64,000 bases of DNA from Sphingobium sp. (GTDB lineage Bacteria; Pseudomonadota; Alphaproteobacteria; Sphingomonadales; Sphingomonadaceae), in NCBI GenBank assembly GCA_035196065.1, contig CP136575.1, forward strand, positions 401,001 to 465,000, in the 5' to 3' direction. The notes under the pieces were generated by a model. The model made no database searches. It worked only from the letters and a program-made list of their open reading frames with translations, and was not told the DNA's origin. How positions within the stretch are numbered: position 1 is the first letter of the stretch; each line of letters starts with the position of its first letter. Shown one piece after another: positions 33,158-63,168 of the stretch. Both the position numbers and the translations under genes were made by a program.

Positions 33158-33232
33158 GCGGGCGTAGCTCAGGGGTAGAGCACAACCTTGCCAAGGTTGG
33201 GGTCGAGGGTTCGAATCCCTTCGCCCGCTCCA
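33158..33232 (+). tRNA. tRNA-Gly (anticodon GCC), CCA encoded; integration target
   Basis: Cloverleaf: acceptor GCGGGCG/CGCCCGC, D arm GCTC/GAGC, anticodon stem CAACC/GGTTG around TTGCCAA, T arm GAGGG-TTCGAAT-CCCTT, discriminator T, then CCA. Anticodon GCC reads GGC and GGT. The part from the anticodon loop to the 3' end recurs three more times downstream, marking this gene as the attachment site of stacked integrative elements. Confidence 0.96.
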
Positions 33233-33238
33233 GTTTTC
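33187..33238 (+). repeat. Attachment repeat copy 1 (inside tRNA-Gly)
   Basis: CTTGCCAAGGTTGGGG through the tRNA 3' end and CCAGTTTTC. These 52 bases are identical to 53088-53139; about 46 and 56 bases are identical to copies 3 and 4. Confidence 0.93.
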
Positions 33239-33295
33239 TTCAGAAAATCAACGGTTTGCAAAACCCCCTCCCGGCGGGACGCTCGGATTTTGCTA

Positions 33296-33335
33296 TGTTC
33301 GGATCGTGTTCGGATTTTCCAGGTTGTGTTCGGAT
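33296..33335 (+). repeat. Arm-type direct repeats TGTTCGGAT (left end of element I)
   Basis: Three copies of TGTTCGGAT at 33296, 33307 and 33327. The first two are spaced 11 bases start to start, exactly as at 53013, 54802 and (one base changed) 63038. Weaker copies lie at 33476 and 33488. Placed between the tRNA and the integrase gene, they look like integrase arm-binding sites. Confidence 0.75.
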
Positions 33336-33525
33336 TTGCGCGGATCGATAGCTCTCTGGCTCCGCCGCCTCAAACCAAAGCACTACAAACAGATTCGTTC
33401 AATCGCTTTCCAACGCCAATTTCCACATCGAGAAAATTTGATCGAGACCGTTCCCCTGACAATAAAAAAATAGCATGTTCGGACTGCATTCGGATTCAGA
33501 TGGTAGATTATGTTGCCCGGGGGAA

Positions 33526-34785
33526 ATGGTGAGGGAAGGTTCTGCTAAATCAACTAAGGGGATGATTACGGCGTCCAAAACCTTCCGTGAGGGCGCAATC
33601 TATCTCTACCAGCGCTCTGACTTCAAAAAACCTACCTGGCTGTGCCGAATTAAAATTCCAAAGACTAAGGGGTATGTAACGCGCAGCACTGGCACTGGTG
33701 ATGAGCATCAAGCGTTCAAGTTTGCCGATGACCTGTACAATCAACTGTTAGTCAAATCACTCACTGGCGAAACCGTCGTTGGCAAGCGGATTGGTCCAGC
33801 AATTGACGCCTACGTCCGCAGGATAGAAGCAGACAAAGAGCGGCTATCGATCCGATACAAAATTCTGCTGATGAACAGGATTAAGCCACACTGGGCCAAG
33901 AAGATGTTTGAGGACATCTCACCCTCGATGATCTCCAAGCTGGTCGACAAGCTCATTGAGAACTCACGGAACGGTAGGCTGTCGCCAAATACTATCAAAC
34001 GGATTTACTCCGACCTTAAGCACTTCTTCCAATGGACCGTCGAAGAGGGCTATCTCGACAAAATGCCCCGCTTTCCGAAAACAAATGGCGAGGCCGCCCG
34101 TCGACCACACTTTGACCCAAGAGATTGGCAGCGGCTGACGCGACACCTTAGGGAATTCGTTAAAGTCGAAAACAAGGCAGTCCAACGCGATCGAAAAATG
34201 CTAGTCGATTACGTTCTTATACTAGCCAATACCGGCATCCGTGTTGGCGAAGCCCGAACGCTTAAATGGCGAGACATCCGCGAGGCGGGTGGCAGCCCCG
34301 ATACTCCCGCCAACATTGTGCTGACGGTTTCCGGAAAGACAGGCAAACGTGAGGTAGTTTCGGCGTCCAGCGACATCAAAAAGTATCTCAAACGCATCCA
34401 TGACCTTAGAATTGCAGAACTAACGATAGAGGGCAAACCACCGCCCAAGCTTGACCCAGAAAGCTTGGTATTCTGTCATAAGGATGGATCAGAAATAGGC
34501 ACGTTCAAAAAGTCATTTGCCGCCCTGCTCAAATCCGCAAAGGTCGAGCGTGACACCCATGGGCAGGTACGCACGTTATATTCACTGCGTCACACCTACG
34601 CGACATTCCGCCTGCAAAATGGCGTACACCAATTCACACTCGCCAAGAACATGGGGACGTCCGTCGCAATGTTGGAGCAGTATTACGGGCACACGTCGAA
34701 CGTCGCAGCGGCGGATGAACTGACCAAGCGAGTGGCGAAGAAAACAACCGGGGCTAGCTTGTCTCTGAGCTGGCTTAATAGCTAA
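33526..34785 (+). CDS. int: Tyrosine-recombinase integrase of element I
   Basis: About 419 residues. The N-terminal region holds an arm-binding part, a SAM-like core-binding domain spans ~85-190, and the catalytic domain ~205-400. Catalytic residues seen: Arg in TGIRVGEARTLKW, Lys in SGKTGKREV, Arg in SLRHTYATF, and Tyr in LEQYYGH; the second box His is replaced in the MGTS variant common in phage-type integrases. It should recombine the tRNA-Gly site with its copies. The start is uncertain: 33475, 33526 and 33562 (MITASK) are in frame. It points away from the tRNA, the usual layout for tRNA-targeting islands, and is the only full integrase in the 30-kb array. Confidence 0.9.
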   Translation: MVREGSAKSTKGMITASKTFREGAIYLYQRSDFKKPTWLCRIKIPKTKGYVTRSTGTGDEHQAFKFADDLYNQLLVKSLTGETVVGKRIGPAIDAYVRRIEADKERLSIRYKILLMNRIKPHWAKKMFEDISPSMISKLVDKLIENSRNGRLSPNTIKRIYSDLKHFFQWTVEEGYLDKMPRFPKTNGEAARRPHFDPRDWQRLTRHLREFVKVENKAVQRDRKMLVDYVLILANTGIRVGEARTLKWRDIREAGGSPDTPANIVLTVSGKTGKREVVSASSDIKKYLKRIHDLRIAELTIEGKPPPKLDPESLVFCHKDGSEIGTFKKSFAALLKSAKVERDTHGQVRTLYSLRHTYATFRLQNGVHQFTLAKNMGTSVAMLEQYYGHTSNVAAADELTKRVAKKTTGASLSLSWLNS

Positions 34786-34843
34786 AAAAGGTCACATTAG
34801 TCTAAGCCTTACAGACAAATGGACTTGCCTGTCGTTTGGGAAC

Positions 34844-35458
34844 CTAACCATCCGTTTTCTGGACGCATCTCAACGCTAATTGGCGCAGACCTATATGGTC
34901 GAGTTCGAAAATTGGCACCTGTGGCGGTGCCGAGCGCAATAGATCACACCCGCCCAGCCAACGACGCGGGTCGCGGACAGAGGCGGGTATAGGATCGGTA
35001 GCGGGGATATGGCTCGGTCCAACCAAAATAGGCTCCCAATCGAATAGATCGGCATCATTAGCGCCTGCAGTCACATTACGTGCCGTTATATCACCATGCG
35101 GAATCCCAGCAGCGTGAGCAAAAGATACAATGCGGGTGAGCTTCTCCAACGCGATGAGGCTAAGGGGGTTGTTCTGGTTCAACCGCTTAAGGGTTGGATC
35201 CGCGAAGCTGATGCGAGTCAGCAATGTGCCTTGAAGGTCAAAGCGCGTTCTGCCCGACGTGACCATCTCAATCAGCCTACACCGCTGCATTACCCGACGA
35301 CGCCAAGATGGCGTTGGAGACCAAGCGCTCAGATTATAGAGCTTAAGGAAAAAAGAGCCCTCTGAGCGGAGTAAACGCCCGCGGGCTAAATACGGGCGCT
35401 GCGGATCTGCATCGAAAACAACTCGATGTTTTGAATCGATAAGTAGTTGAAACGACAT
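34844..35458 (-). CDS. Kinase-like protein with HGD catalytic loop
   Basis: 204 residues. The segment AAGIPHGDITARNV (~residue 130) matches the HxDxxxxN catalytic loop of protein-kinase-like enzymes, and DLFDWEP ~10 residues on sits where the DFG metal motif would be. FFLKLYNLSAW (~37-47) could supply the ATP-binding Lys, but no glycine-rich loop is visible, so it is either a minimal lipopolysaccharide-kinase/RIO-like kinase or a pseudokinase. It starts 12 bases after the polyaspartate gene, so the two form an operon, and it converges on the integrase. The substrate is unknown; the partner protein is the natural candidate. Confidence 0.6.
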   Translation of the reverse strand: MSFQLLIDSKHRVVFDADPQRPYLARGRLLRSEGSFFLKLYNLSAWSPTPSWRRRVMQRCRLIEMVTSGRTRFDLQGTLLTRISFADPTLKRLNQNNPLSLIALEKLTRIVSFAHAAGIPHGDITARNVTAGANDADLFDWEPILVGPSHIPATDPIPASVRDPRRWLGGCDLLRSAPPQVPIFELDHIGLRQLALRCVQKTDG

Positions 35459-35470
35459 CGCTAACTAAGG

Positions 35471-37072
35471 CTAAAAATCATCAGCAGCATCATAGTCTTC
35501 ATCATCATCGTCATCATCGTCATCATCATCATCGTCATCATGCAATCGGAACAGCTCATGGTCACCGCTATCGACATCACCATTGCAGTAAGAGAGATAC
35601 TCACAACGGCCATTTAGAAAAAGGGCAACCGTTTCTTCTAGCGACCGACTCAGTAGTTTTGCCATTCCAGCGATAGATAGATCGATCGGGCAGGTTTCGG
35701 GAAAATCGACCAGGACGATGACACCAAGTGAAGCATTAATGATAGCATCCTCAAGATCTTCTTCATCGTGCTCAGCTTGCATTGAGATCGTCACAAGCGC
35801 CGATTCGAGTGCATAAGAAAGATCAGCTTCGCTTAGTAAAGTAGTGCGTGCGTCATCTGTCTCAAGGTAGTGATGCACTCGACCTTGCAAGTGAATCTTG
35901 ACCGGTTCGCCGCAGATTTCCTCAAAAATGTCTTCGATGCAATTTGACAGCTTTCCAGCACGAAGGCTGTCACGTGTGCTTTCTTGCCAAGTAGTTATTT
36001 GAAGGGTTATGCTTCGGCGCATCAATGCAAGGTTTTCACCGATAGCTTCTTCTACCCCAAGTGGCAGACACACAGCGCGGCGAGGGCCGTTAGCGTGAGT
36101 TCCAAGACCGAAGTTGACTGTGCTCCAATTCATTGTTGCAGCGAGGCGTCTGGCGAGCGCATAAATAGCCTTGCTCTTAAACCAGGTAGCGCCAGGGCCG
36201 ATATCTGAGATGTGATAAGTCTCGTTCGCTGTGCGCTCTATGATGGATTTGACAAGATCATCGCCCGCAACTGGAGTATCGATAAAAACGCCAGAAGAAA
36301 CGGCATCAAAAAGATAAGGACCAGACAAATTTTCTAAAAAAATGTCCAAATCATCATCAAAGCGGCTGGCCGGTATAATATCTATACGATCGCCAAAGAA
36401 GCGCAAAAACACAATTCCCGATATCGCTCCTGAAGCGATTTCACGCAAAGACGGGGTTTGAATTTTCGAAGCGCCATCAAAATCTTCAGCTTCAAAAGCG
36501 CAAACACCAATGAGCTGACCCCAGCCTAGCCCACTAATGTCGACGGGCTCATCAGATGGCAACAAGCGGGCGCCGCGTCTGTCATGGGTCAAAAGGAAGC
36601 AGGCTGGGTTGCCATCAGCGTTACGTGACCTGAGAGTGGCAAGGTCTTGCGTGAGTGTTTGAATTAGCTCTGGATCGCCTGGCAGAGAGAGACCTTCCCA
36701 AAGCGAGGGACCCAAAACTCGATGCCTGCTACGCACCAAAACGGCACCATTTAGAAGAACGCGCACGTCGAACGCCTCGGCGTCCATTACACTTATTGCC
36801 CACGTAAGCGGAAAACGGTTTTCTAGTATATCCGCCTGGTCTGGATCGGGATTTAAGCGGTCGACTATGCGAACAAGTAGTTCTGTGACGTCACTATCAC
36901 CCAGCGGAACGCTCACCAAAGAACTGTAGGGGTCTTCCATAAGTTGGGACAGCAAATCTTGAATCTGATCGTCGGACGCAGAAGATACGATTGCCCAAAA
37001 TGAGGTGAGAGCCTCTATGGGCTCAAGGCGTTCATCGTCGTCAGTTTGACGCGCAATCCACTCTTCTAACAT
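35471..37072 (-). CDS. 533-aa protein of unknown function with polyaspartate C terminus
   Basis: I do not recognise this family. It is acidic overall and mixed alpha/beta in appearance, with no membrane segment or signal peptide. The C terminus is extreme: 13 consecutive Asp residues (coding bases 35501-35539), then EDYD and AADDF. The run is built from repeated GAT/GAC codons. The kinase-like gene follows after 12 bases, giving a two-gene unit framed by the integrase and a small plus-strand gene. Possible roles include a sensor or effector controlled by phosphorylation, or a DNA-mimic/charge-based inhibitor through the acidic tail; none is shown by sequence. Confidence 0.65.
   Translation of the reverse strand: MLEEWIARQTDDDERLEPIEALTSFWAIVSSASDDQIQDLLSQLMEDPYSSLVSVPLGDSDVTELLVRIVDRLNPDPDQADILENRFPLTWAISVMDAEAFDVRVLLNGAVLVRSRHRVLGPSLWEGLSLPGDPELIQTLTQDLATLRSRNADGNPACFLLTHDRRGARLLPSDEPVDISGLGWGQLIGVCAFEAEDFDGASKIQTPSLREIASGAISGIVFLRFFGDRIDIIPASRFDDDLDIFLENLSGPYLFDAVSSGVFIDTPVAGDDLVKSIIERTANETYHISDIGPGATWFKSKAIYALARRLAATMNWSTVNFGLGTHANGPRRAVCLPLGVEEAIGENLALMRRSITLQITTWQESTRDSLRAGKLSNCIEDIFEEICGEPVKIHLQGRVHHYLETDDARTTLLSEADLSYALESALVTISMQAEHDEEDLEDAIINASLGVIVLVDFPETCPIDLSIAGMAKLLSRSLEETVALFLNGRCEYLSYCNGDVDSGDHELFRLHDDDDDDDDDDDDDEDYDAADDF
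35501..35539 (-). repeat. Trinucleotide tract encoding Asp x13
   Basis: Thirteen tandem ATC/GTC triplets on the plus strand, read as GAT/GAC on the minus strand. Ten are ATC and three GTC, so the tract is a near-perfect microsatellite inside a coding region. Confidence 0.9.
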
Positions 37073-37215
37073 AGCGAAAAATCTCCCAACAAACGCCTTA
37101 GCTTAAGTGGTTTAGTCGCCAGCACAAGCGGGCAGATCAATCGCCTACTGTTGAAGCTGTGGACCTTAATTTCGAATGGGGGGACCCGGCGGCATCAACC
37201 AAAGGAGATGTCACC

Positions 37216-37572
37216 ATGGAACTCAAATTCGCAGCCACAGCTCGCCCTAGCAAGGCAAATGCGACCGTACAGCGACGCCAGAAGCTTGTTCGCCGGATCG
37301 ATCAGCAGATTAGCTTCGTGCGACAAATGATTGATGGCAAGCAACCTCGAGCGGCTTGGGCATGGATGGATGAAGCTGGAACCTACTTCCTCCCAATCAA
37401 ATACGGGCGCCAGCCTCTTGAGTTGAAAAAGGGAATGTTTTCGATCCAGTGCGCGGATATCGATTCCGTTGAGGCAACGCTTTGCACCGTGAGAGCCATG
37501 GTGCTTCAGGGTGACTTTGACGATCAGCTTGACAAGGCATCCACCGAGATCAGGGCAAAATTTAAAGCCTGA
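37216..37572 (+). CDS. Small protein of unknown function
   Basis: 118 residues from ATG 37216, which has AAGGAG 8 bases before it; a longer frame from 37159 lacks such a site. It has a basic N-terminal third (RPSKANATVQRRQKLVRR) and a WAWMDEAGTYFLPIKYGR core. No family recognised. It is divergent from the polyaspartate gene and may share its regulatory region. Confidence 0.6.
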   Translation: MELKFAATARPSKANATVQRRQKLVRRIDQQISFVRQMIDGKQPRAAWAWMDEAGTYFLPIKYGRQPLELKKGMFSIQCADIDSVEATLCTVRAMVLQGDFDDQLDKASTEIRAKFKA

Positions 37573-37575
37573 AGC

Positions 37576-37929
37576 TCAGATTAGAGCGTAGCAAAAGGCA
37601 ACCAAGATCATAACGCACAGCAGCAGCGATGGGGAAGATACCGCGCTTGGTCGCTTGGACTCGACCTGAGCGATCATAGCAAGAAGTTGACCTTGCTGCT
37701 GGTATAGCAGCTTTAGAGCATCCTGCATTGGCGCACTGTCTATGTAGGACGCAGAATCCTCGGCAAGAACGCTAGCTTCTTCAAGCAGTTTCAGAGCCTT
37801 CTGTAGCCTTGGCAATGGATTGTGGTGAGGAGAATGTAACTGCGCAATAGCTATCTGATGCAATGACTTTGCTTCAGCGAGCATAGCTGAAACGTGTGCC
37901 TCTACAGCGCTAAAGTCGCCTCGCTCCAA
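37576..37929 (-). CDS. Small coiled protein with C-terminal membrane anchor
   Basis: 117 residues: a long helical, Leu/Gln-rich body (residues ~1-90) and a single hydrophobic segment at the very end (LLLCVMILVAFCYALI). That makes a tail-anchored topology likely. Family unknown. It starts 11 bases after the next gene upstream and is convergent with the small gene at 37216, 3 bases away. Confidence 0.5.
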   Translation of the reverse strand: MERGDFSAVEAHVSAMLAEAKSLHQIAIAQLHSPHHNPLPRLQKALKLLEEASVLAEDSASYIDSAPMQDALKLLYQQQGQLLAMIAQVESKRPSAVSSPSLLLCVMILVAFCYALI

Positions 37930-37940
37930 CTCAACTACGC

Positions 37941-38432
37941 TCAGCTGTACTCGGCTAGCGTCTTTCTGGCAGCGGCAACCACCGCGGAATCGAACACTTC
38001 TGCATACTTTACGACAACGGCTTCAAACGAAGCATCCAGGCGTCCCATGTCGCGCAACGCTTGTAGACCCGCCGTTTTGCCGCCTTTTAGAACGCTGCTC
38101 GAAACAGCAACCAGAATGTCGGTGTCCTTGATTTTCCGACGAAGGTAGGTGGCGCGTGTGGGTCTCTCATTCTCAACCGATTTGAGATATTCGTAAGCAT
38201 ACAACGCCTCCCACAGTGCACGGTCTACATCTGCACCAGCATCATGCTTCGCAGCCGATAGTTGCCAATATCGGCTCACCGCAGCATCGTGGACTGTCTG
38301 TGAAATTCCAACATCCTTGCCAGCAGCGATATTTGCCTTGGCATTTGCAATGGTGGTGCGCAGATCCTTAAGTGAAGTCGATTTTTCGACATTCGCTAAA
38401 GCATTAGAATTATTGTGCAACGTTACCCCCAA
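37941..38432 (-). CDS. Hypothetical helical protein
   Basis: 163 residues, Ala/Lys-rich and mostly helical by eye, with no motif I can name. It lies 11 bases upstream of the tail-anchored protein gene and runs in the same direction, so the two are probably co-expressed. The pair is downstream of the serine recombinase gene. Function unknown. Confidence 0.5.
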   Translation of the reverse strand: MGVTLHNNSNALANVEKSTSLKDLRTTIANAKANIAAGKDVGISQTVHDAAVSRYWQLSAAKHDAGADVDRALWEALYAYEYLKSVENERPTRATYLRRKIKDTDILVAVSSSVLKGGKTAGLQALRDMGRLDASFEAVVVKYAEVFDSAVVAAARKTLAEYS

Positions 38433-38500
38433 AGACGATGGTGATTCTACCGATCATGATATTGAAGCGCTAACGAGGCACAAGCAAGATTCAGCGTGCG

Positions 38501-39148
38501 CTATGGATATCGGCTGCTTCGAAATCGAGCCATCAGTTGGCTGATATGCTCAGCATAAAATGGTCCACCTCGGACGGCTCTGACGCCCCTAGCGTTAAGG
38601 CGGCGAGCTATCTCGCTAAGGGATAATCCCTCCTCGACCATAGGCATGATGACGGGGCGTAGTGCCTCTGCCCGCTCATCGGCAGCTTTGCGGTTTCGCT
38701 CTGCCAGCACCGACCCATTCTTGCCCAGCTGAACACCCCGCTTCTTCGCCTCAGCAAGGGCGTTGCGTGTTCGCTCTGAGATTAGACGGCGTTCCTCCTG
38801 CGCAAGGGCTGCAAAGATGTGCAGCTGGAAGTCCGTGGCGTTCGGCATCTCTGCCACCACAAGCCCGATCCCCTGCTCCATGATCGATGCAATGAAGCTG
38901 ACCTTGCGGGAGAAGCGGTCGAGCTTTGCGATTAGGAGTTTAGCGTCATTCCGCTTGGCGTGATTGATTGCCTTCCACAGCTCCACCCGCTCATCGTTCT
39001 TGCCTGATTGGACTTCGACGTACTCGGCAACAACTGCATCACCATCGGACAGGAACCGTTCGACCAGTGAGTGCTGGGCAGCCAGACCGAGACCTGACTT
39101 GCCCTGCTTCTCCGTCGAGACCCTGAAATAGACAACATATCGAGCCAT
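38501..39148 (-). CDS. Serine recombinase (resolvase/invertase family)
   Basis: About 215 residues. The N-terminal catalytic domain has the nucleophile in YFRVSTEKQG (Ser 11) and the LLIAKLDRFSRKV motif with two catalytic Arg. A linker with LISERTRNALAEAKKRG follows, then a short helix-turn-helix (GLSLSEIARRLNARGVRAVRGG). The size fits a small resolvase/invertase rather than a large integrase. ATG 39148 gives the conserved MARYVVYFRVS start. A perfect 10-bp inverted repeat lies 12 bases upstream and is a likely binding or crossover site. It could resolve element dimers or invert DNA locally. Confidence 0.9.
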   Translation of the reverse strand: MARYVVYFRVSTEKQGKSGLGLAAQHSLVERFLSDGDAVVAEYVEVQSGKNDERVELWKAINHAKRNDAKLLIAKLDRFSRKVSFIASIMEQGIGLVVAEMPNATDFQLHIFAALAQEERRLISERTRNALAEAKKRGVQLGKNGSVLAERNRKAADERAEALRPVIMPMVEEGLSLSEIARRLNARGVRAVRGGPFYAEHISQLMARFRSSRYP

Positions 39149-39159
39149 TTTCCACTTTT

Positions 39160-39193
39160 CCGTCAAACACAAACCAACGTTTATGTTTGACGG
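39160..39193. promoter_or_regulatory. Inverted repeat upstream of serine recombinase
   Basis: CCGTCAAACA (39160-39169) and TGTTTGACGG (39184-39193) are perfect inverted copies separated by 14 bases. The position, between the divergent recombinase and the small gene at 39262, fits a resolvase binding site or operator. Confidence 0.6.
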
Positions 39194-39261
39194 GCTCCGA
39201 TGGAATGGCAGTCTGGGCAACGGGAAAGCCGTGGCATCAGAAAGCTGAAAGGGAAATGTGC

Positions 39262-39510
39262 ATGGGAATGCAGGCGCTGGCGCTCTACGATCCTACCAAC
39301 AACCGCTTGGAGGTCACTCGTAAGGGAGAATCCATGAAGCGGTATATACCATGCACAAACATCAGACCGCCACATGACAAGGTGCATGGGATACAGGTCG
39401 ATGGCGATGACATATGGGTTCTGGTCGGACCTAGCACAAACCCCAGACCTAACCGCAAATTCCTTTACCGCTTCTCGACCCTATCTGGCGGCAGCAGTCG
39501 ATCTATGTGA
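39262..39510 (+). CDS. Small hypothetical protein
   Basis: About 82 residues; starts at 39256, 39262 and 39268 are all possible, with AGGG best placed for 39262. The sequence has ALYDPTNNRLEV and a TNIRPPHDKVHGI stretch, with a Pro/Asn-rich end. It is divergent from the serine recombinase gene. No family recognised; moderate confidence that it is translated. Confidence 0.4.
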   Translation: MGMQALALYDPTNNRLEVTRKGESMKRYIPCTNIRPPHDKVHGIQVDGDDIWVLVGPSTNPRPNRKFLYRFSTLSGGSSRSM

Positions 39511-39606
39511 CCCTAGCGCATCACGATCACAGTAGCCCCTTGGCGAACCAAGTCGGACTTAGTGGGTAGCTGGTTCAACTCTGAACCTTCATAGATTTCA
39601 AATGAT

Positions 39607-40866: not shown

Positions 40867-41270
40867 TTTGTCTATCTCTACTTCTGGTTTTTTTGAATTT
40901 TCAGTGCTTGCATAAAAGCTACGTTTGTGGCGAAAATTTTTCTTTTCTGTCCCAAGGAAATATTAAAATTAATAAAAATACTAAAACACCAGAGGATTTT
41001 AGTATATACATGGTTTCTTATAAAAGAAAAAATTTTAGTATATATGAGGGAGATAATCCAAATATAGACGATCATTTTTTAGAAATATTTAAATTAAAGT
41101 TCCCTAATATTACTGATAAATATATAGTATACTCTTACAAAAATGATTTGATTTTGAAGTTAAGTAGATCAAAATATCCCCGTTACATTCATTTTATGAG
41201 CGTCTTAAATGATAAAGATGCTTATAATTACATAGCTAAAAGCTTTTTTTTAGGGAATAGATGCAATTGA
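40854..41270 (+). CDS. Putative immunity protein for the RHS metalloprotease tip
   Basis: 138 residues with a hydrophobic signal segment ending in NFQC, which could be a lipoprotein or plain signal peptide, followed by a Lys/Tyr-rich mature part. GGAGGGG lies 6 bases before ATG 40854. The start overlaps the toxin stop, the classic toxin-immunity layout. The gene is much more AT-rich than the RHS core, a mark of exchangeable tips. An exported inhibitor would meet a periplasm-acting protease. No family recognised, so the role rests on position. Confidence 0.55.
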
Positions 41271-55600: not shown

Positions 55601-57274
55601 TTACTGCTTTCTATCAGAATAAACGGCTCGGGTCGCAGCAGGCGCGTCAAGTAGGACCCAAAGCGAAACGGATGCTGCACCCAGCAAGGTGGCAACGGCT
55701 ATCGCCCGTGCCTTTCGAACCTCCATGCCGGGCCAGAGCGGTAGTGTCGATAGAACCGCCAACGCCAGTGGCAGCGCTGCGACGAAGGGCAGCGTCGGGC
55801 CAACCCCTTGCATCAACTGATGACCCAGCGCCAACATGAAGCCTCCGACTAGTGCTGCAATACCAATCCGTACGGCAGAATACCGCACCCAGAGGGTAAA
55901 GGTGACGAGCACCATCGGTAGAACAACCACATAGGCCGCCGTCGGCGCCGATGCTTGCGCGGCAAGGCTGATGATGAACAGTGGTAGCGCCGCTCCTACG
56001 ACACCAGCGCGACTTGGCTGCCAGGCAGCAAAAGCCGGGAGAAACGCCGCCAGCGAGCCCAACGCCGCCATAACCTCTAGCCGGGGGATCGCGGCCAAGC
56101 GATCATAATAATTGGCAGGCTCAAGCCCAAGGGATAAGCGGTTAAGCGAGAAGAGTATCGCTGCACTTGCCACGATCAGCGCTAACATACGTCCAGCGCC
56201 CGCCGCTAAACCGTCTGCTCCGTCTTGCCGCACGGCAAGGACCATTCCGCCCGCCGCAATGATTATCATTCCCCAACCCAGCCAAGAGGGATAAATCGCA
56301 GTGAACAACCCGAATACGTCAAAGAACACGGCATCAGCCGCCCTTTGGGGAAGTCTGTCTGCATTAACGAGCGCCTGGGTAAGGTCTAGAACCTGCCCAC
56401 CCATGTCCTGTAATGACCGTTGATCAAGGTTGTCCGGCGTTGCCAATGGTGAGTGGTAAAGGCCGGATCGGCCGATGAAGGCAAAATTATAAGCTGCGTA
56501 ATCATGCTCGATCACAGGTGTCAGATCGGAATCATTGGTCAGGAGCGCGTAAATGAACGCTGCAAGTGAAGATGCACCAGGGCGATTGACCGCATCGGCG
56601 TAAACCTGCATTGCTTCACCGTTCTGGTGTGACGTCTGGAACAGGGTGGTCCGCCCTCCGCTTCCGCGTGCTTCCATATTGATAACGGCGCCAACGCGTT
56701 TGCGCAAAGGATGGTTCGCCCAGAATTGACGCGCACCCTGCAGGCGAAGTTCTTCGCCATCGGTGACCAGCATGACCAGATCGCGTTGCTGCTGCCCCGT
56801 GGCGCGGATTGCGCGCACGACTTCCAAGCTTGCAGCAACCCCTGATGCATCGTCTGCGGCACCGGGCGAGCCCCAAACCGTATCGTGGTGCGACATCAGA
56901 ACAACTGACGAAGCGTTGCGATTTTTTCCCGGCAGAATGCCGATCAAATTGACAAATGTGGCCGGTGGATCGTTGCGTCCGCTCCAGTGATTGAGCCGCT
57001 TTACCCCCTTGGCGTCGATTCGGCCCGTGCTGGTCGAAACTTCCATCCCGAGAGCTTTCATGCGGCGAATGATGTGCTCGCGCACGACTGCGTTCTCGGG
57101 GGAGCCGGTGACATGCGGATGTTTCGCCATTGTTATCACGTCCGCCATAGCCCGGATTGCGGAGAAGCTTAGTGCCGAGGCATTACCCGGCATTGCTCTT
57201 GGCGGAGTAGTTGCAAAAAGCGCCAACATGAACGCGACAATCAGCGCCACCAAAAACGGGCCAAATCTCTTCAT
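55601..57274 (-). CDS. Membrane-bound M28 family metallopeptidase
   Basis: About 557 residues from ATG 57274, which has AAGGGGGA before it; upstream frame to 57373 is ignored. After an N-terminal membrane anchor comes an M28 zinc peptidase domain with SHHDTVWGSPGAADDASG (His and bridging Asp), DGEELRLQGA (Glu-Glu) and a terminal His in LYHSPLATPDNLDQ. The C-terminal ~230 residues form several membrane helices. This layout resembles ER-type Fxna peptidases and their bacterial relatives; it should trim peptides with the active site outside the cytosol. Confidence 0.9.
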   Translation of the reverse strand: MKRFGPFLVALIVAFMLALFATTPPRAMPGNASALSFSAIRAMADVITMAKHPHVTGSPENAVVREHIIRRMKALGMEVSTSTGRIDAKGVKRLNHWSGRNDPPATFVNLIGILPGKNRNASSVVLMSHHDTVWGSPGAADDASGVAASLEVVRAIRATGQQQRDLVMLVTDGEELRLQGARQFWANHPLRKRVGAVINMEARGSGGRTTLFQTSHQNGEAMQVYADAVNRPGASSLAAFIYALLTNDSDLTPVIEHDYAAYNFAFIGRSGLYHSPLATPDNLDQRSLQDMGGQVLDLTQALVNADRLPQRAADAVFFDVFGLFTAIYPSWLGWGMIIIAAGGMVLAVRQDGADGLAAGAGRMLALIVASAAILFSLNRLSLGLEPANYYDRLAAIPRLEVMAALGSLAAFLPAFAAWQPSRAGVVGAALPLFIISLAAQASAPTAAYVVVLPMVLVTFTLWVRYSAVRIGIAALVGGFMLALGHQLMQGVGPTLPFVAALPLALAVLSTLPLWPGMEVRKARAIAVATLLGAASVSLWVLLDAPAATRAVYSDRKQ

Positions 57275-57933
57275 GCGCTTCCCCCTTGATCGGGCAGCCT
57301 GTTGCCCGCCCCACGAAGTCAGGTCAATATCTGCGTAACAAAGCTCTAACTTGCTTGTCCAGTGCGACCCCAACCCAAAGGAGAGCCGCGCGCTGAAGTA
57401 TCGAACGGCGCTTAGGCTTCAGGATCCGCTAGCGGCCCAATTCCTGGTGCTCGCAGCAAAGCCCTTCTCGTGACCGTTTTGCGCCCATTTGCTGACAGGC
57501 TGCTTTTGGTAGCTCTCCCTCCAAAGCTGCCCGTCCGTTGATGAGTGTCTCGCGGTCGCTTCCCAAGGTCCGATTGTGGGTGGGAAGCGGACATGCAGAT
57601 GAGCTTCGTTTTCCGGCTTATTCTGAGCCGGAGGCGGACTGTCTGCTTCTATGCGCGGATCGATGAATAGCTGCCGTTTATGCAAGTCAGAAAGCCTAGC
57701 TTTTATCTCTAATTTTGCAGACGTTCGATAAGCCTCTCGCGTTTTGCAAAACCTGCCGTTCGTTCAGCTCACACTTTTCCGTTACTTATTGCTGCTTTTG
57801 TGGATCAGCTTGATCAATGCTAGTGTCTTGAATATTGTGAGAAGCAGACGTTACGCTGGTCCCAATCCGACCCACGCTTCTCAACTGGAGCGAGTGCGAT
57901 CAAGAACAAGGCATTACGAGCCGAGCAATTAGA
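57275..57933. other. Non-coding stretch with second repeat copy
   Basis: No convincing gene. It holds repeat copy 2 (57436-57487) and further short pieces resembling the 55.3-kb region (GGCGGACTGTCTGCTT near 57632). Confidence 0.45.
57436..57487 (+). repeat. 52-bp direct repeat flanking the M28 gene, copy 2
   Basis: Counterpart of 55372-55423, same orientation, on the other side of the M28 peptidase gene. Confidence 0.7.
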
Positions 57934-59151
57934 TCATGGTCGGACAACCGTGATGACGATGTCGCCAAGGAAGTTCGAACGATGACGCACCACATCGTTT
58001 GGCTGCAGGAAATGGCCGCCAGCGAGTTCGTTGGCGATAAATTTCCGGCGCGCGATATCCATCATTGATTGGCTCGCCATTGGACCGCCCTCAATTGCAT
58101 AAGCGAACGCCGCATCGATCAGGTCTCTGCGCGTTGGTGGTGTGAAGATCGTGCCCTCAGCTGTTCCAGACATCAGTGTGGCGGTCGGTGGAATCGCGCC
58201 ATCGGGCATGAGCTTGGAATAGTTGCCGCGATAGAGAAAACGCGCTTCGGTCATATCGGAGAAGGCCTTCTGCGAGAGCGCTCGGAAGTCGAGCGTCATC
58301 TCTCTGCCGCGCGCGTCTTGGCGCGGCGCGCCGTTGATTGCGGTCGTCATGCGGATGTTGGCAACAAACGTCTTCCAGTCTCTGGGAATAACGAGAAAAG
58401 GCCCCGTTGGAAAGAAATCGGGCCCGCTCTTGGCATCGCTAAAGCCGCTGCCTGAATCGAGATTATCCGGATCGGCCAGGTTGATAAGTGCGTTGCGATT
58501 GGTGAAATCGCCGCACAGGAAGAATGCCTTTACCGCTTGATCAAAGTCCTCGGCAGTTCGCAATGTCCGGTCGAAACGGACGCAGATTTCGACCTCGTAA
58601 TCGAGCAGGATGCCCTCGCGTGCCTGCACTTGGGTGCGTGCGGGAGAGGCGGGACCGAACTTGGGAAACTGGAACACGGCGCCGCTCTCGGCCTCTTCGG
58701 CGTGCTCGGGGAAATTAGTTCCTGTACCGATCTGGCGGGTGCCAGCTGGGCCTGACGGCAGCAGATCACCAATTGCAATCGTGACCTTCCGTATCGTGCC
58801 AGCGCGCCCGGCTAATACCGGGGCCAGGTTCACGGCAGCCAGCGCCGCAAACGGATCGGCTGTCGCTGGGGCACCGAGTTCGGCTAGGTCGATGCCGGTA
58901 ACGCTCTCCCCTTCCCGGGCGAGCACCAGCAATGTGTGCGTGTCGCCATTCGGCGCACGGAGCTGCGCAAGCGTGATAGCCTGCTCAAGCGGGGCGATGC
59001 CCTGAACAAGTGGCTTGTCCTCAAAGCTTGCCGGATTGAACCGTGGATCGGGCGATGTCGCCCAAGCCGTGAACACGATTACCGCCATCGCGATCATCGA
59101 CCAGCCAAACCACTTGGCGACCTTTCTTAAGGTCATTCGATTTTGCGGCAT
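57934..59151 (-). CDS. FAH-family hydrolase with N-terminal membrane anchor
   Basis: About 405 residues from ATG 59151 (GGGAGG upstream). A membrane segment near the start (WSMIAMAVIVFTAWA) is unusual for this family and suggests attachment to the inner membrane. The C-terminal fumarylacetoacetate-hydrolase fold shows NFPEHAEEAE, GILLDYEVEICVRF (metal Glu) and FLCGDFTNRNAL. Members break C-C bonds of beta-diketone-like acids or decarboxylate them. It is divergent from the TetR gene; with the DAPG-hydrolase-like enzyme it suggests stepwise C-C hydrolysis of an acylated ring. Confidence 0.82.
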   Translation of the reverse strand: MPQNRMTLRKVAKWFGWSMIAMAVIVFTAWATSPDPRFNPASFEDKPLVQGIAPLEQAITLAQLRAPNGDTHTLLVLAREGESVTGIDLAELGAPATADPFAALAAVNLAPVLAGRAGTIRKVTIAIGDLLPSGPAGTRQIGTGTNFPEHAEEAESGAVFQFPKFGPASPARTQVQAREGILLDYEVEICVRFDRTLRTAEDFDQAVKAFFLCGDFTNRNALINLADPDNLDSGSGFSDAKSGPDFFPTGPFLVIPRDWKTFVANIRMTTAINGAPRQDARGREMTLDFRALSQKAFSDMTEARFLYRGNYSKLMPDGAIPPTATLMSGTAEGTIFTPPTRRDLIDAAFAYAIEGGPMASQSMMDIARRKFIANELAGGHFLQPNDVVRHRSNFLGDIVITVVRP

Positions 59152-59203
59152 CGGCTGCAATCCTCCCTTTTGACGTCCACACAACTTCAGACGCAAAACA
59201 TTA

Positions 59204-59219
59204 TTGACACATGTTATAA
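59204..59219. promoter_or_regulatory. Candidate TetR operator
   Basis: TTGACACATGTTATAA is centred on ACATGT, with 10 of 16 positions symmetric. It lies between the divergent FAH and TetR genes, 20 bases before the TetR start. Confidence 0.4.
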
Positions 59220-59238
59220 AAATATTCAAGTCGACAGC

Positions 59239-59880
59239 ATGTCAAGACGCGAAGAAGCCAAAACATTCAACCGAGCGCGCATTTGTGCGGCGGCGGAATC
59301 GATTATTCGCAGCGAAGGTATGGACAATCTCACCATGCGTCGCTTGGCCGTGGTGGCTGGTGTCAGCCTGCGTACGCCCTACAACCTATTCGGATCGAAG
59401 ACCGATGTGCTGATCGCACTGCTCGATGAGGCAGTTTTCAAATTCACCCAATTGGGTTCGGCCCACGCTGACGGTGCGGCGATAGCGCGCATGTTGCGCG
59501 CGCTTGGGCAGATTGAGACGTTTTTCGACAGCGATGAAACCTATTACCGCGGCATTTATGCCGCGATCATGACCTCCGATCATCCAGAGGTTCGCAGCAC
59601 AAGCGTCGACCGCGCAATCGCATCGGCGCGCGTGTTAATGGCGCAAGCTATCTCCAATGGCGAACTGCGTGCGGACACCGATGCCCAGTCGTTGGGCCGC
59701 CACCTCGCGATCACGCTCCTCGCGGTGCTTGGCATGTGGGGTTCGGGGTTCTTTTCGAACCGCGAAAGCATGGCGCAGGCGCGGCGCGCGTGGCTCGCGG
59801 TCATGCTACAGCATTGCAGCGAGACATCGCGCTCCATGCTTGCAGCGGCCTATGAAAACCCCAGTGACATTGGAGACTAA
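59239..59880 (+). CDS. TetR-family transcriptional regulator
   Basis: 213 residues from ATG 59239 (MSRREEAK). The N-terminal HTH is clear: ICAAAESIIRSEGMDNLTMRRLAVVAGVS, then RTPYNLFGSKTDVLIALL. The C-terminal ligand domain is helical and less conserved. It heads an operon with the DAPG-hydrolase-like and FAD oxidase genes and is divergent from the FAH gene, so it probably controls all of them from the shared 87-base gap. Confidence 0.92.
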   Translation: MSRREEAKTFNRARICAAAESIIRSEGMDNLTMRRLAVVAGVSLRTPYNLFGSKTDVLIALLDEAVFKFTQLGSAHADGAAIARMLRALGQIETFFDSDETYYRGIYAAIMTSDHPEVRSTSVDRAIASARVLMAQAISNGELRADTDAQSLGRHLAITLLAVLGMWGSGFFSNRESMAQARRAWLAVMLQHCSETSRSMLAAAYENPSDIGD

Positions 59881-59884
59881 TACC

Positions 59885-60706
59885 ATGAACCAACGGCTCC
59901 TTGGATACCTACCGGACGAGCTTGCGCAAAGCCCCTATGCCAGCTTCTTCAATCCCGAGCTCGCACCGCTTCAGCCACAAGTCGCTGAAGCTTTGCTCAT
60001 CGGACCGCAGGCGCAAGAATTGTTTGCACCTGCTAGCGCGGCTGCAAGCATGGCTGAACCGGGCTACTGGCCGGTTGAGACCGGCTATACCTGTCCGACC
60101 GACGGCTCGATCCGGGTGTTCTGCCTGACCGAGATGCCGGGCGTGACGCCAAGGATGTGGGACTGGTGGTTCGGCTGGCACGGCTGCGAGGCGCAGCGCT
60201 ATAAGCTGTGGCACCCAAAGGCCCATATCGACGCGCGCTGGGCCGACGGGCGCAACGACGAAAACTATATCGGGCGGACATCGCTGATCACCGAGTATCT
60301 TGGCCCGAGCGTCTTGAAAGGGGCCATCGGCTTTGTGCCGCCTGCTGTTATGGGCTTTAACCAAGATCGGCTGGCCGCGCAGGGTGAAGTAGTAATCTGC
60401 GCGCGCGTCGGTGTGCCCGGGACTGCGCTAAAGGGCGGGTGGCTTCTACACCAGTTACGCCCAGTTGCAGGCGGCAGCGAAATGCGCTCGCGGATGTGGA
60501 TGGGTGGGGAAAATACCGCGCTGGGCGATAATCCCGGTGCCATAAGACGAGGATTGGCGAGAGCCATTCGTCCGGTTGCAAGCAAACTTCTTCCCGCACC
60601 CGCAGACCTGCTTGTCCATAATGCGCAAGAAATGGCGCATCTGGCGGGCTTCCTCCCACAATTGTTCGATGAATTTGGCGCTGCCTATCGCGAGCAGCAG
60701 GCATGA
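59885..60706 (+). CDS. DAPG hydrolase (PhlG)-family protein
   Basis: 273 residues from ATG 59885, with GGAG upstream and 4 bases after the TetR stop. It has the PhlG-type motifs WWFGWHGCEAQRYKLWHPKAH with metal His/Glu and, near the end, HNAQEMAHLAGFLPQL with the His-x3-Glu pair. PhlG removes an acetyl group from 2,4-diacetylphloroglucinol by zinc-dependent C-C hydrolysis. This homolog probably deacylates a similar polyketide-like aromatic. Its stop overlaps the oxidase start as ATGA. Confidence 0.85.
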   Translation: MNQRLLGYLPDELAQSPYASFFNPELAPLQPQVAEALLIGPQAQELFAPASAAASMAEPGYWPVETGYTCPTDGSIRVFCLTEMPGVTPRMWDWWFGWHGCEAQRYKLWHPKAHIDARWADGRNDENYIGRTSLITEYLGPSVLKGAIGFVPPAVMGFNQDRLAAQGEVVICARVGVPGTALKGGWLLHQLRPVAGGSEMRSRMWMGGENTALGDNPGAIRRGLARAIRPVASKLLPAPADLLVHNAQEMAHLAGFLPQLFDEFGAAYREQQA

Positions 60707-62049
60707 AACGTCCCTCGGGCCGGGGCCGCGTCTGGCGACGCGGCGATGCCGGCTTCGACAAGGCTGTGCTCGCAACCAGCTTTAACGCCCGCGACCCGGG
60801 CGTGCGGCCAGAGCTTCTGGTCGAGGCCAATGATGCAGGTGATGTGCAGGCCGCCTTGCAACTGGCGCGCGACAACCTTTGGCAGGTCAGCATCGTTTCG
60901 GGCGGTCATAGCTGGGCGCAGAACCACATCCGCGACGGCGGACTGCTGCTGAGCATGGCCCGGTTCAACCAGATTACCATTGATCCAGTGACCAGAATTG
61001 CACTGGTTGGTCCCGGATGCTGGGGGCTCGACCTAGATAATGCGCTGCGAAAGCACGGGCTGTTCTTCCCCATCGCCCATGCACCCGATGTCGCGATGGG
61101 TGGGTTTCTGCTGCAAGGCGGTTTCGGCTGGGGCAGCCGCGAACTAGGACTGGCGACCGAGAGTTTGATAGGCATTGATCTGGTGCTGGCCGATGGCCGT
61201 CAGGTCCATGCCAGCGCCAGCGAGAATGCAGACTTGTTCTGGGCCGCGCGCGGATCGGGGCCGGGCTTCTTTGCGGTAGTGCTGCGCTATCACCTAAAGC
61301 TTCACCCCCGCAAAAAGGTCACTGCGTTGAAGCTGCAGGTCTTTCGCCAACGGCATCTGGAGCAGGTCTTTCGTTGGGCCGATGACATCGGCAGCGCCGT
61401 TCCCCAATCCATCGAATTTCAGATACTCATCACCCCTAAGGCGCTGGGTATCTTCCAGCCCGGCATTGAAGTCATCGCGCCGGTTCTTGCCGACAGCTGG
61501 GCCGAAGCGCGTGAAGCGGTGCGTTTTATCTCCGATAGCCCAATCCGGAAGCTGACGAGCTTCACCACCCCGCTTGTGCCCATGAGTACGAGTTTGATGT
61601 CTCGGGCCGCCAATATCACCCATTTCCCACCAGACGTGCGCTGGTGTACCGATAACATTTGGACCGACGCGCCGATCGACAACCTACTGCCCGGCCTGCA
61701 AGCGATTGCCGCCACGATGCCACCTGCGCCGAGCCACAGCCTGTGGCTGAACTGGCATCCACAGCGGCAGCGGCCTGACATGGCGTTCTCGTTAGAGGCG
61801 AAGCGTTATCTTGCGGTCTATGGCGAATGGACGCGTGGGGAGGACGACCATCTGTATGCCAATTGGGCGACTGAACGGATGGCCGCGATGCAGGCGCATG
61901 CTGTGGGCATCCAGTTGGCAGATGAAAACCTGGGAAAAAGGCCGGCTCTCTTCATGAAAGATGAGAATTTGGCGCGGCTGGACCGTTTACGTTGCAAATA
62001 TGATTCCGGGGGGCTTTTCCGAGCATGGATGGGGCGGCCGGGGCTTTGA
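60703..62049 (+). CDS. FAD-linked oxidoreductase (PCMH/BBE type)
   Basis: 448 residues. The FAD-binding PCMH domain has VSGGHSWAQNHI with the His that carries flavin covalently in this family, then GCWGLDLDNALRKHG and GGFLLQGGFGWGSRELGL. The second Cys of bicovalent members is not in the expected place. A BBE-like C terminus (DRLRCKYDSGGLFR in place of KYDPxNxF) closes it. It likely oxidises a phenol or alcohol made in the same pathway. Translationally coupled to the DAPG-hydrolase-like gene. Confidence 0.88.
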   Translation: MKRPSGRGRVWRRGDAGFDKAVLATSFNARDPGVRPELLVEANDAGDVQAALQLARDNLWQVSIVSGGHSWAQNHIRDGGLLLSMARFNQITIDPVTRIALVGPGCWGLDLDNALRKHGLFFPIAHAPDVAMGGFLLQGGFGWGSRELGLATESLIGIDLVLADGRQVHASASENADLFWAARGSGPGFFAVVLRYHLKLHPRKKVTALKLQVFRQRHLEQVFRWADDIGSAVPQSIEFQILITPKALGIFQPGIEVIAPVLADSWAEAREAVRFISDSPIRKLTSFTTPLVPMSTSLMSRAANITHFPPDVRWCTDNIWTDAPIDNLLPGLQAIAATMPPAPSHSLWLNWHPQRQRPDMAFSLEAKRYLAVYGEWTRGEDDHLYANWATERMAAMQAHAVGIQLADENLGKRPALFMKDENLARLDRLRCKYDSGGLFRAWMGRPGL

Positions 62050-62163
62050 TACCGCCCCGTAGCACCGACATGATGTTGCAAAAAAGGTCAGGGCCGGGTC
62101 GCAACCAGAATGGTGCGTTGGATATGATTATCGGAGAAATAGTCCGGGCTATTTGCGTTTGCC

Positions 62164-62784
62164 TTACAGCCCCATAACAATTGCCTTGGCAAAGGCGGGG
62201 CGCTCGCTGATGCGCTGTACATAGGCTCTCAAATTGGTCATTTCTTCTGGAATGCAGACAAGCCGATTGCTCATGAAAGCGGCATGGCCGAGCATAATAT
62301 CTGCACCTGAGAAATCGCCGATCAGATAATCCTTGCCGGCAAGCGTTTCATCGACCGGCTGCCATGCCCGGGTCAGCAATTTGCGTGCCTGCTCCAGGAC
62401 GGTTTCGTCGCGGCGCTCGGGCGGGAGAAGTAGCGTGTGGACGACAATAGTGTTGACGGGAGGCATCACCATGCCTTCGCAATAATGAAACCATTGGAGA
62501 TAGGGGGCAAAGTGAGGTCCATCGACAGCGGGCTTCAACCCGCCATTTTTGTGCCGCTCCAGGATATAGTCGACAATGGCACCGGATTCGAAAATCGATA
62601 TTTCACCGTCGTCGAGAACCGGGACACGGCCTAACGGATGACGGGCACGATGTTCGTCGGATTTGAGATCCTTGGGATGAAACGCCATCAGGTTCAACTC
62701 GTAGGGCAATTCAAGCTCCTCAAGCAACCAACTGATGCGGCTTGCGCGGCTATTCGGTGCAAAGTGTAGCTTCAGACTCATCAT
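62164..62784 (-). CDS. Glutathione S-transferase
   Basis: 206 residues: thioredoxin-like N-terminal domain with APNSRASRISWLLEEL, RVPVLDDG and the ESGAIVDYI glutathione-binding motif, then an all-helical domain with LIGDFSGADIMLGHA. The active-site residue is probably Ser in the first motif. It may conjugate or isomerise products of the adjacent oxidase/hydrolase cassette, as GST-type isomerases partner FAH enzymes elsewhere; here that link is inference. Start at 62784 or the next Met at 62781. Confidence 0.92.
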   Translation of the reverse strand: MMSLKLHFAPNSRASRISWLLEELELPYELNLMAFHPKDLKSDEHRARHPLGRVPVLDDGEISIFESGAIVDYILERHKNGGLKPAVDGPHFAPYLQWFHYCEGMVMPPVNTIVVHTLLLPPERRDETVLEQARKLLTRAWQPVDETLAGKDYLIGDFSGADIMLGHAAFMSNRLVCIPEEMTNLRAYVQRISERPAFAKAIVMGL

Positions 62785-62972
62785 TCCGTCTCCCGGTTAC
62801 ATTTTTTCGACGCCAGGATGTGCAACGTCGAATCCGTCAGTTTTACTTGCATGGGCGCCGTATTGGGCGGCCAGCGAGCACAATGTCAATCAGGCACAAA
62901 GTTCGATTGCGGTAATTGGCAAGTGGGAATGACAGGTTTCGGGCTTGGCATTTGTTCTGCACTGCGACCGCA
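62785..62972. other. Non-coding right part of element III
   Basis: No gene seen between the GST start and the right-end block. Confidence 0.5.
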
Positions 62973-63112
62973 ATTGGGCGCAAAGCTGACACAAAAACAT
63001 TAAGTACAAAGCATTCTAGGCGCACTGCTTTTAAAAATGTTCGGATCGCGTTCGGATTTTTCAGGCGCTCTATAAAAAGCTGATTTAGAACGGAAATTTC
63101 ATAGAGCCGAAT
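62973..63112 (+). repeat. Right-end block of element III
   Basis: Matches the block at 54738-54876: ATTGGGCGCAAA, AACATTAAGTACAAAG, arm repeats at 63038 and 63049 (CGTTCGGAT, one base changed) and ATTTCATAGAGCCGAAT before the core. Confidence 0.75.
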
Positions 63113-63168
63113 CTTGCCAAGGTTGGGGTCGAGGGTTCGAATCCCTTCGCCCGCTCCAGTTTTCTTCA
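63113..63168 (+). repeat. Attachment repeat copy 4 (right end of array)
   Basis: 56 bases identical to the tRNA-Gly 3' end plus CCAGTTTTCTTCA. The sequence beyond should be the original chromosomal DNA downstream of tRNA-Gly. Confidence 0.93.

What the first reader, a model, noticed from the sequence alone, without database searches (positions are those of the whole stretch)
33158..63168. Three integrative elements stacked behind one tRNA-Gly, with four exact attachment copies
The 3' end of tRNA-Gly(GCC) recurs exactly at 33187, 53088, 54877 and 63113 (46-56 bp). It divides ~30 kb into units of ~19.9, 1.8 and 8.2 kb. Only the first unit has a full integrase, so the other two look like passengers captured by site-specific accretion. 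This is a clean natural example of an array growing at one tRNA.
Basis: partly seen in the sequence, partly recalled or inferred. Interest (0 to 1): 0.75.

Follow-up and report, generated by a model that had tools for sequence, protein, structure and literature searches.

The report
tRNA-anchored cassette array with helper integrase
Behind one glycine tRNA gene this sphingomonad-group bacterium stacks three mobile DNA blocks, and comparison with relatives suggests a genus-wide pool of metabolic-gene cassettes without integrases of their own that may depend on a rarer helper element to move.

Summary
In detail: four exact 46-bp copies of the tRNA-Gly(GCC) 3' end bound units of 19,901, 1,789 and 8,236 bp, and only unit 1 has a full tyrosine integrase. 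Accretion is supported and can be sharpened. In 21 of 27 complete units an integrase arm-type repeat (two GTTCGGAT, 11-bp period) lies exactly 82 bp before the att core; the arm sequence changes with integrase clade. Of 72 att-bounded left ends read in the genus, 32 share a non-coding left end (LE-A, up to ~430 bp, palindromes GTTCYRATTRGAAC). None of the 18 complete LE-A units has a PF00589 match; window unit 3 is one. LE-A shares 175 bp with the mobility/cargo boundary of a 31-kb integrase + B-family-polymerase element, which has four such palindromes. Units cross species: 92.6-99.5% identity against 70-79% in the tRNA flank for five pairs. Neighbours of homologous units differed in 17 of 17 usable comparisons. 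A same-species draft shares flanks but, as far as assembled, no unit. Att decay concentrates tRNA-distally. Closest known kinds are CIME/ICE accretion and Dehalococcoides ssrA islands; unusual is a dedicated integrase-less cassette family with helper-like sites. Mobilisation in trans is inferred, not shown.

The parts
33158..33232 (+). tRNA-Gly(GCC), intact; its 3' 46 bp (33187-33232) is att copy 1
   Evidence: ARAGORN
33233..53133 (+). Unit 1, 19,901 bp, integrase-bearing, counted to the end of att copy 2
33297..33335 (+). Left-end arm-type repeats GTTCGGAT at 33297, 33308 and 33328; first two at the same offsets as in the seven other integrase elements compared
33475..34785 (+). Tyrosine integrase, 436 aa (catalytic-motif reading from recall)
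   Evidence: PF00589 E 3.4e-11; phrog_1; alignment
38501..39220 (-). Serine resolvase-like gene in unit 1; a resolvase also lies in the PolB helper
   Evidence: PF00239
44780..45364 (-). Second, N-terminally truncated tyrosine recombinase (194 aa) in unit 1
   Evidence: PF00589
45799..46266 (+). Ros/MucR-type regulator in unit 1
   Evidence: PF05443
46847..49714 (+). Replication protein, 955 aa, helicase (origin-binding-protein-like), with weak primase matches in its N-terminal part
   Evidence: PF02399; phrog_4913 and others
53014..53032 (+). Right-end arm repeat of unit 1, at -82 from the 38-mer att core
53088..53133 (+). att copy 2, exact 46 bp
53134..54922 (+). Unit 2, 1,789 bp; starts with 69 bp like the integrase-type left end (91% to G003), no integrase found
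53853..54659 (+). GDSL lipase/acylhydrolase, cargo of unit 2
   Evidence: PF13472
54803..54821 (+). Right-end arm repeat of unit 2
54877..54922 (+). att copy 3, exact 46 bp
54923..63158 (+). Unit 3, 8,236 bp, LE-A cassette without integrase
54923..55350 (.). LE-A conserved non-coding left end (right limit approximate); palindromes at 54994 and 55232 are the only two in the 64-kb window
55601..57373 (-). M28-family peptidase, cargo
   Evidence: PF04389
57934..59229 (-). FAA-hydrolase-family protein, cargo
   Evidence: PF01557
59657..60706 (+). DAPG-hydrolase-family protein, cargo; lies in the stretch shared with a G003 unit
   Evidence: PF18089
60703..62049 (+). FAD-binding oxidoreductase-like protein, cargo
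   Evidence: PF01565
62164..62784 (-). Glutathione S-transferase-like, cargo
   Evidence: PF02798
63039..63057 (+). Right-end arm repeat of unit 3 (one mismatch)
63113..63158 (+). att copy 4, exact 46 bp, last copy before the flank shared with G044

Best explanation
The stretch is a site-specific accretion array at tRNA-Gly(GCC). A lambda-type tyrosine integrase of the family encoded in unit 1 recombines the 46-bp 3' end of the tRNA with att sites of incoming circles. It recognises arm-type repeats (their position and covariation with integrase clade are shown; binding is inferred): on the right end of most units (fixed at -82), and on the left end of integrase elements (starting 65 and 76 bases, mostly also 96, after the core). 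Two kinds of unit use the site. Helpers carry integrase, a replication module and, in the one read to its end, cargo; some have a B-family DNA polymerase, while window unit 1 has a helicase-type replication protein. Non-autonomous cassettes such as unit 3 carry cargo between the same right end and the conserved non-coding LE-A. They probably arose when a helper mobility module was lost or replaced, and are probably moved by helper integrase acting in trans (both inferred). New units most likely enter at the tRNA end while old ones decay at the far end (inferred from att decay). Homologous recombination through LE copies probably reshuffles cargo too (inferred from one pair).
For: Att copies and arms. 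Arms at the same offsets with clade-specific sequence. Arrays across the genus. LE-A in 32 of 72 genus left ends: (counts). No PF00589 match in the 18 complete LE-A units. LE-A/helper shared 175 bp (82.9%) and shared palindrome. Exact palindromes: 33 in the first 430 bp of the 32 LE-A units, 1 in the other 288,965 bp of them, 0 in 175,254 bp of chromosomal left flank. Transfer: G003_0/G023a_0 99.5% over 29.9 kb against flank 79.1%; unit 3/G003_1 92.6% over 5.0 kb against 69.8%; G019_1/G023c_0 95.4 against 78.8; G019_2/G045_1 95.2 against 77.5; G019_2/G007a_1 94.6 against 77.3. Neighbours different in 17 of 17 unit-to-unit comparisons. Att decay polarity, permutation p 0.002-0.003. Same-species turnover.
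Against: No excision, circle or transfer was observed. LE-A lacks GTTCGGAT repeats at the helper offsets, so recognition of cassettes by this integrase rests on the right end alone. 10 of 15 genomes with LE-A show no integrase of at least 50% identity (its first look is heuristic and several genomes are incomplete). In G044 the right 2.5 kb of the copper helper lies on a contig away from the tRNA, so the newest-at-tRNA rule may not be strict. Flank identity uses only 2-8 kb. Three other shared pairs are little more similar than their flanks: G019_1/G058a_3 89.1 against 85.1, G045_1/G007a_1 95.2 against 94.0, G023a_1/G046b_0 97.2 against 93.3. Array order is partly kept in one case: G045_1 and its right neighbour G045_2 match G019_2 and G019_4, with G019_3 between the latter. 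The decay test rests on 6 mismatched copies in 5 arrays.
Confidence: 0.8

Rival explanations
1. Ordinary CIME accretion: units 2 and 3 are simply decayed former integrase elements that keep att ends and ride in cis with unit 1; no dedicated cassette class or trans mobilisation.
For: Unit 2 keeps a remnant of the integrase-type left end. LE-A matches a helper's internal boundary, as a deletion product would. CIMEs are defined this way in the literature (PMC5704250 passages).
Against: 32 left ends in 15 genomes share LE-A (5 of them over only 34-54 bp) rather than many different deletion scars. LE-A units occur with different neighbours in different species, 17 of 17 usable comparisons, so they seem to move or be exchanged singly.
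Confidence: 0.4
2. Cassettes spread mainly by RecA-dependent exchange: LE-A and the right end act as homology arms after DNA uptake, and the integrase is needed only rarely.
For: In G023a_1 against G046b_0 the left end is about 80-93% identical per 100 bp and the adjoining cargo about 100%, a sharp step at the LE/cargo border. Many cassette-bearing genomes lack a close integrase. Fused units seem to exist (G058a_3).
Against: Does not explain the att core and arm geometry, units shared between species with 70-79% identical flanks, or LE-A right after tRNA-Gly in another genus.
Confidence: 0.3
3. Assembly artefact or tRNA-fragment duplication without mobile elements.
For: Short direct repeats can mislead assemblers; some relatives are drafts with Ns beside the tRNA (G003, G013).
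Against: The window genome is one 3.02-Mb contig. The same arm-att geometry recurs in independent assemblies and other genera.
Confidence: 0.02

Closest known systems
ICE/CIME site-specific accretion (ICESt1-type; reviewed in PMC5704250, passages seen)
   Same: Tandem units with shared att sites in a gene 3' end; some units keep only attL/attR.
   Different: Here most integrase-less units form one recognisable family with a conserved non-coding left end in 15 genomes. No conjugation gene was recognised among the proteins scanned (not all were scanned).
Dehalococcoides ssrA genomic islands (PMC3146451, passages seen)
   Same: Several islands stacked behind one RNA gene, 15 of 31 without an integration module, metabolic cargo, a short motif beside the repeat.
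   Different: Serine recombinase and tmRNA there; tyrosine integrase and tRNA-Gly here. A helper-like control region in the cassette ends was not mentioned in the passages seen.
Additive flexible genomic islands and tycheposons in aquatic bacteria (PMC10872708, passages seen; the original tycheposon paper is recalled only)
   Same: Repeats of a tRNA 3' end marking variable islands in aquatic bacteria (tRNA-Lys, 20 bp); tycheposons with tyrosine recombinase and nutrient cargo.
   Different: Different tRNAs; arm sites and a two-class helper/cassette structure were resolved here.
Integrons and CALINs (PMC11389934, passages seen)
   Same: Works like: arrays of cassettes without their own recombinase, attachment sites between them, an integrase possibly acting in trans.
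   Different: tRNA-core sites with arm repeats instead of attC, multi-gene cassettes (complete LE-A units 3.4-41 kb), no integron integrase recognised.
Pipolins (PMC7385651, passages seen)
   Same: The 31-kb helper has a B-family polymerase, tyrosine integrase and att repeats at a tRNA.
   Different: Membership in the primer-independent polymerase clade was not established. Window unit 1 has no relative of that polymerase.

Membership tests
Site-specific accretion array (ICE/CIME type) | Direct att repeats from one target gene bounding tandem units | tested here: met
   Four exact 46-bp copies, one orientation
Site-specific accretion array (ICE/CIME type) | Units without integrase that keep both att ends (CIMEs) | tested here: met
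   18 complete LE-A units without PF00589 match at E up to 0.001; window unit 2 likewise
Site-specific accretion array (ICE/CIME type) | Demonstrated cis co-mobilisation with a conjugative element | not testable with these tools
   Needs excision and transfer assays; no conjugation gene recognised among proteins scanned, not all ORFs scanned
Integron/CALIN | attC sites and IntI-type integrase | tested here: not met
   Sites are a tRNA core with arm repeats; the integrase matches PF00589 and phage-type phrog_1. No dedicated attC or IntI search was run
Pipolin (for the G003/G023 helper) | Tyrosine recombinase and att-like repeats at a tRNA | tested here: met
Pipolin (for the G003/G023 helper) | Primer-independent PolB clade | tested here: inconclusive
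   PF03175 E 4.1e-11 and phage DNA polymerase families; no relevant PDB sequence match (58, 72); model unusable, pLDDT 30 (85); no tree built
Phage satellite | Relation to phage genomes or packaging genes | tested here: inconclusive
   No confirmed relative in IMG/VR for arm, integrase or PolB; one 20-mer hit without att, arm or palindrome (80, 83); packaging genes not searched for

The most novel reading that the evidence does not exclude
Sphingorhabdus-group bacteria keep an integron-like system built on a tRNA: a pool of multi-gene metabolic cassettes, each with a dedicated control end (LE-A) and an arm-bearing right end, is inserted in order at tRNA-Gly by integrases supplied in trans by occasional self-replicating helpers whose regulator sites the cassettes also carry.
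Probability: 0.35. Interest if true: 0.75.

Novelty: new variant of a known kind. Interest (0 to 1): 0.6.

Why it matters
It makes a long-standing question testable: how islands with no mobility genes spread. The cassettes have defined ends, a candidate integrase, candidate control sites and a natural same-species pair of arrays, so excision in trans, insertion order and cassette exchange can be measured directly. It would also explain how these sphingomonads swap copper resistance, TonB receptors, sulphate uptake or hydrolase/oxidoreductase genes as ready blocks.

Tried and rejected
LE-A as a coding gene: rejected. A recurrent ORF of about 94 aa is broken by single-base indels between copies. 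LE-A as a known RNA: no Rfam match in window 53,000-64,000 at E up to 1. As a structured RNA: RNAalifold on 19 aligned LE-A gave only 4 of 89 (+) and 4 of 82 (-) pairs with double changes, so not supported. LE-A on plasmids: no match for unit 3's left end in distant blastn. Integrase on plasmids: none at E up to 1e-20. Viral contigs: arm pattern 0, PolB and integrase no relative confirmed, LE-A 20-mer one contig without att, arms or palindromes, taken as chance.

Structure prediction of the helper polymerase failed (pLDDT 30), so no fold search was made. PADLOC gave two weak hits in 10 proteins. A clean empty site for the window's own species was not found: the stretch 0.8-6.8 kb beyond att copy 4 matches relatives at places away from their tRNA-Gly. 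G052, first taken as empty, has chromosomal-type flank for about 41 bp after the tRNA and then about 2.7 kb of other DNA before the flank resumes. G042 and G021 do have the tRNA joined to the flank that follows a lone att copy in G018.

Five of the 32 LE-A assignments rest on matches of 34-54 bp (G003_2, G045_2, G058a_3, G013_0, G007a_1). In one search, 35 rows were aligned, of which G023a_9 is a contig-start artefact, so 34 are real. The first neighbour count (27 of 27 different) was tightened: 17 comparisons between pieces of at least 2 kb, all different; 4 of a unit with a flank and 6 with a piece under 2 kb were set aside. Which left ends count as flank (28) was my own assignment. An N-flanked second tRNA copy in G003 was dropped from unit counts.
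Full report
OBSERVATION. The four 46-bp copies are exact and in one orientation (33187, 53088, 54877, 63113); only the first belongs to a full tRNA gene. Unit sizes are 19,901, 1,789 and 8,236 bp. Unit 1 has an intact 436-aa tyrosine integrase directly behind the tRNA and a truncated second one. A PF00589 search of the genome found none in units 2 and 3. The window lies in one 3.02-Mb contig.

WHO. Integrases 86% identical to unit 1's also sit at tRNA-Gly in MAGs labelled Novosphingobium LE17-10A and Porphyrobacter LE19-388.1B.

GENUS-WIDE ARRAYS. The core (up to 3 mismatches) is in 37 of 45 genomes, with up to 6 copies in one, against none for the reversed control. From the loci fetched (not every hit), 72 left ends in the genus were classified: 32 are LE-A, in 15 genomes; the rest are integrase-type, a second integrase type, flank or unassigned. 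A LE-A query over 397 family genomes, with two candidates scored per genome, matched 8, in 2 of 96 genera. The match outside the genus, G401, has LE-A directly after a tRNA-Gly sequence.

ATT ANATOMY. Of 27 complete units (26 genus, 1 Novosphingobium), 21 have GTTCGGATCGTGTTCGGAT (up to 3 mismatches) and all 21 have it at -82 from the 38-mer core; 3 have a second-type repeat AAACGGAT-like at -72; 3 have neither. In the genus search the repeat occurs at 38 places in 18 of 45 genomes, against 1 for the reversed control. By my reading of the coordinates 33 lie before an att core, 4 in integrase-type left ends, and 1 (G013) has no core beside it. Left ends of eight integrase elements show repeats at the same first two offsets; the sequence is GTTCGGAT or near it in six, ATACGGAT in one (integrase 60% identical) and AAACGGAT in one (53%). 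A ninth, G013, also shows AAACGGAT by eye, and its integrase is 66% identical to the latter. This covariation is what arm-binding sites would show; binding was not tested.

THE LE-A FAMILY. LE-A is up to about 430 bp, non-coding, with palindromes GTTCYRATTRGAAC at about 72 and 309. Exact palindromes: 33 in the first 430 bp of the 32 units (24 of 32 units have at least one), 1 in the remaining 288,965 bp, 0 in 175,254 bp of chromosomal left flank, and in the window only the two of unit 3. Three units (G003_1, G005a_0, G045_2) lack the part between the palindromes. A PF00589 search of 14 genomes found no integrase inside the 18 complete LE-A units listed.

HELPER. G003_0 and G023a_0 (31 kb, 99.5% identical over 29.9 kb) carry integrase, an 894-aa B-family DNA polymerase, and copper and metal resistance cargo; the G003 copy also gave a G2P-type replication protein and a serine resolvase. 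LE-A 236-410 of window unit 3 matches this element at 82.9% over 175 bp, between its last mobility-side gene and the cargo. The palindrome lies just before PolB, twice before a 196-aa gene, and in the matching boundary segment; exact or one-mismatch sites lie in the Novosphingobium and Porphyrobacter elements. PolB relatives are in 4 of 45 genus genomes; the other two (G046 on a 4.8-kb contig, G008) show no such palindromes. Window unit 1 has neither PolB nor the palindrome, but a helicase-type replication protein. The left half of LE-A has no match in the helpers beyond short pieces and stays unexplained.

TRANSFER. Unit identity against tRNA-left-flank identity: 99.5/79.1, 95.4/78.8, 95.2/77.5, 94.6/77.3 and, for unit 3 with G003_1, 92.6 (5.0 kb)/69.8. 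Less decisive: 89.1/85.1, 95.2/94.0, 97.2/93.3. One pair, G019_4/G051_0 (85.6), had no flank. A 2,492-bp contig end in G044 is 100% identical to the end of the copper helper of G003 and G023. Of 60 non-flank units or pieces, 26 have a homologue of at least 1.5 kb in another genome (25 pairs). Between pieces of at least 2 kb, 17 neighbour comparisons were possible and none was homologous over 500 bp or more; 4 unit-to-flank and 6 short ones were set aside. One partial exception in order: G045_1-G045_2 match G019_2 and G019_4, with G019_3 between. G044, same species as the window (78% complete), shares both flanks at 98.2% and, as far as assembled, no stretch of 500 bp or more within the units; LE-A itself is shared.

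POLARITY. Att mismatches concentrate at the tRNA-distal end: mean relative position 0.93 on 13 arrays or pieces, permutation p about 0.003, and 0.0016 by copies, resting on 6 mismatched copies in 5 arrays; lone copies on other contigs were not used. Integrase genes of this family, where seen at tRNA-Gly, are tRNA-proximal (G000, G003, G058, G013, five elements of other records; G023 begins at a contig end); G044 may be an exception. Growth at the tRNA end is an inference.

CARGO. Forty proteins, chosen mostly by size, from window units 2 and 3 with flank (10) and relatives' units (30) gave TonB receptors, multicopper oxidase/CopD, cytochrome bd, sulphate permease, GH3 with MFS and tryptophan halogenase, hydantoinase, RND efflux, AMP-binding and FAA-hydrolase families among others. 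Not all cargo genes were scanned.

RECOMBINATION THROUGH ENDS. G023a_1 and G046b_0 have left ends about 80-93% identical per 100 bp but neighbouring cargo near 100%, so ends and cargo seem to have been reassorted at least there. The other pairs examined show no such clear step.

COMPARISON. CIME accretion and the Dehalococcoides ssrA islands are the nearest known systems (passages); repeated tRNA ends in Methylophilaceae islands are another parallel. Searches for Sphingorhabdus islands or tandem tRNA-Gly islands (listings only) showed no title or abstract start describing this array; that covers only the held open library.

Neighbour and unit counts were recomputed, and the count of proteins scanned, integrase identity and right-flank distances corrected.

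Noticed in passing
window 44372-44422 and 45045-45095: A 51-bp direct repeat (92%) at and beside the truncated tyrosine recombinase in unit 1, perhaps a relic of a nested insertion.
   Followed up: no
window 39607-41784: ORFs with RHS-repeat matches in unit 1, looking like fragments of a larger RHS gene.
   Followed up: no
window 43026-43517: DUF7684 protein (E 1e-56) in unit 1, function unknown.
   Followed up: no
G058, G016, G017 loci (L052, L057, L063, L075): A second integrase type with AAACGGAT arms seems to have its own small units (2,450, 752 and 2,449 bp) at the same tRNA; the session's integrase HMM found none in them.
   Followed up: partly
L052-L055 (G058 C2:16.6-78.6 kb): Units of 41 and 21 kb; the second contains most of a cassette that is separate in G019, so att loss seems to fuse cassettes.
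   Followed up: partly
LE-A positions about 195-260: Inverted repeats ACGGATGA-TCATCCGT and TTTGGGA-TCCCAAA in the middle of LE-A; could be an oriT- or origin-like site, but the part is missing in shortened LE-A copies.
   Followed up: partly
L058 (G000:C1:465001-475000): The chromosome right of the array matches relatives at places away from their tRNA-Gly, pointing to a rearrangement in this species.
   Followed up: no
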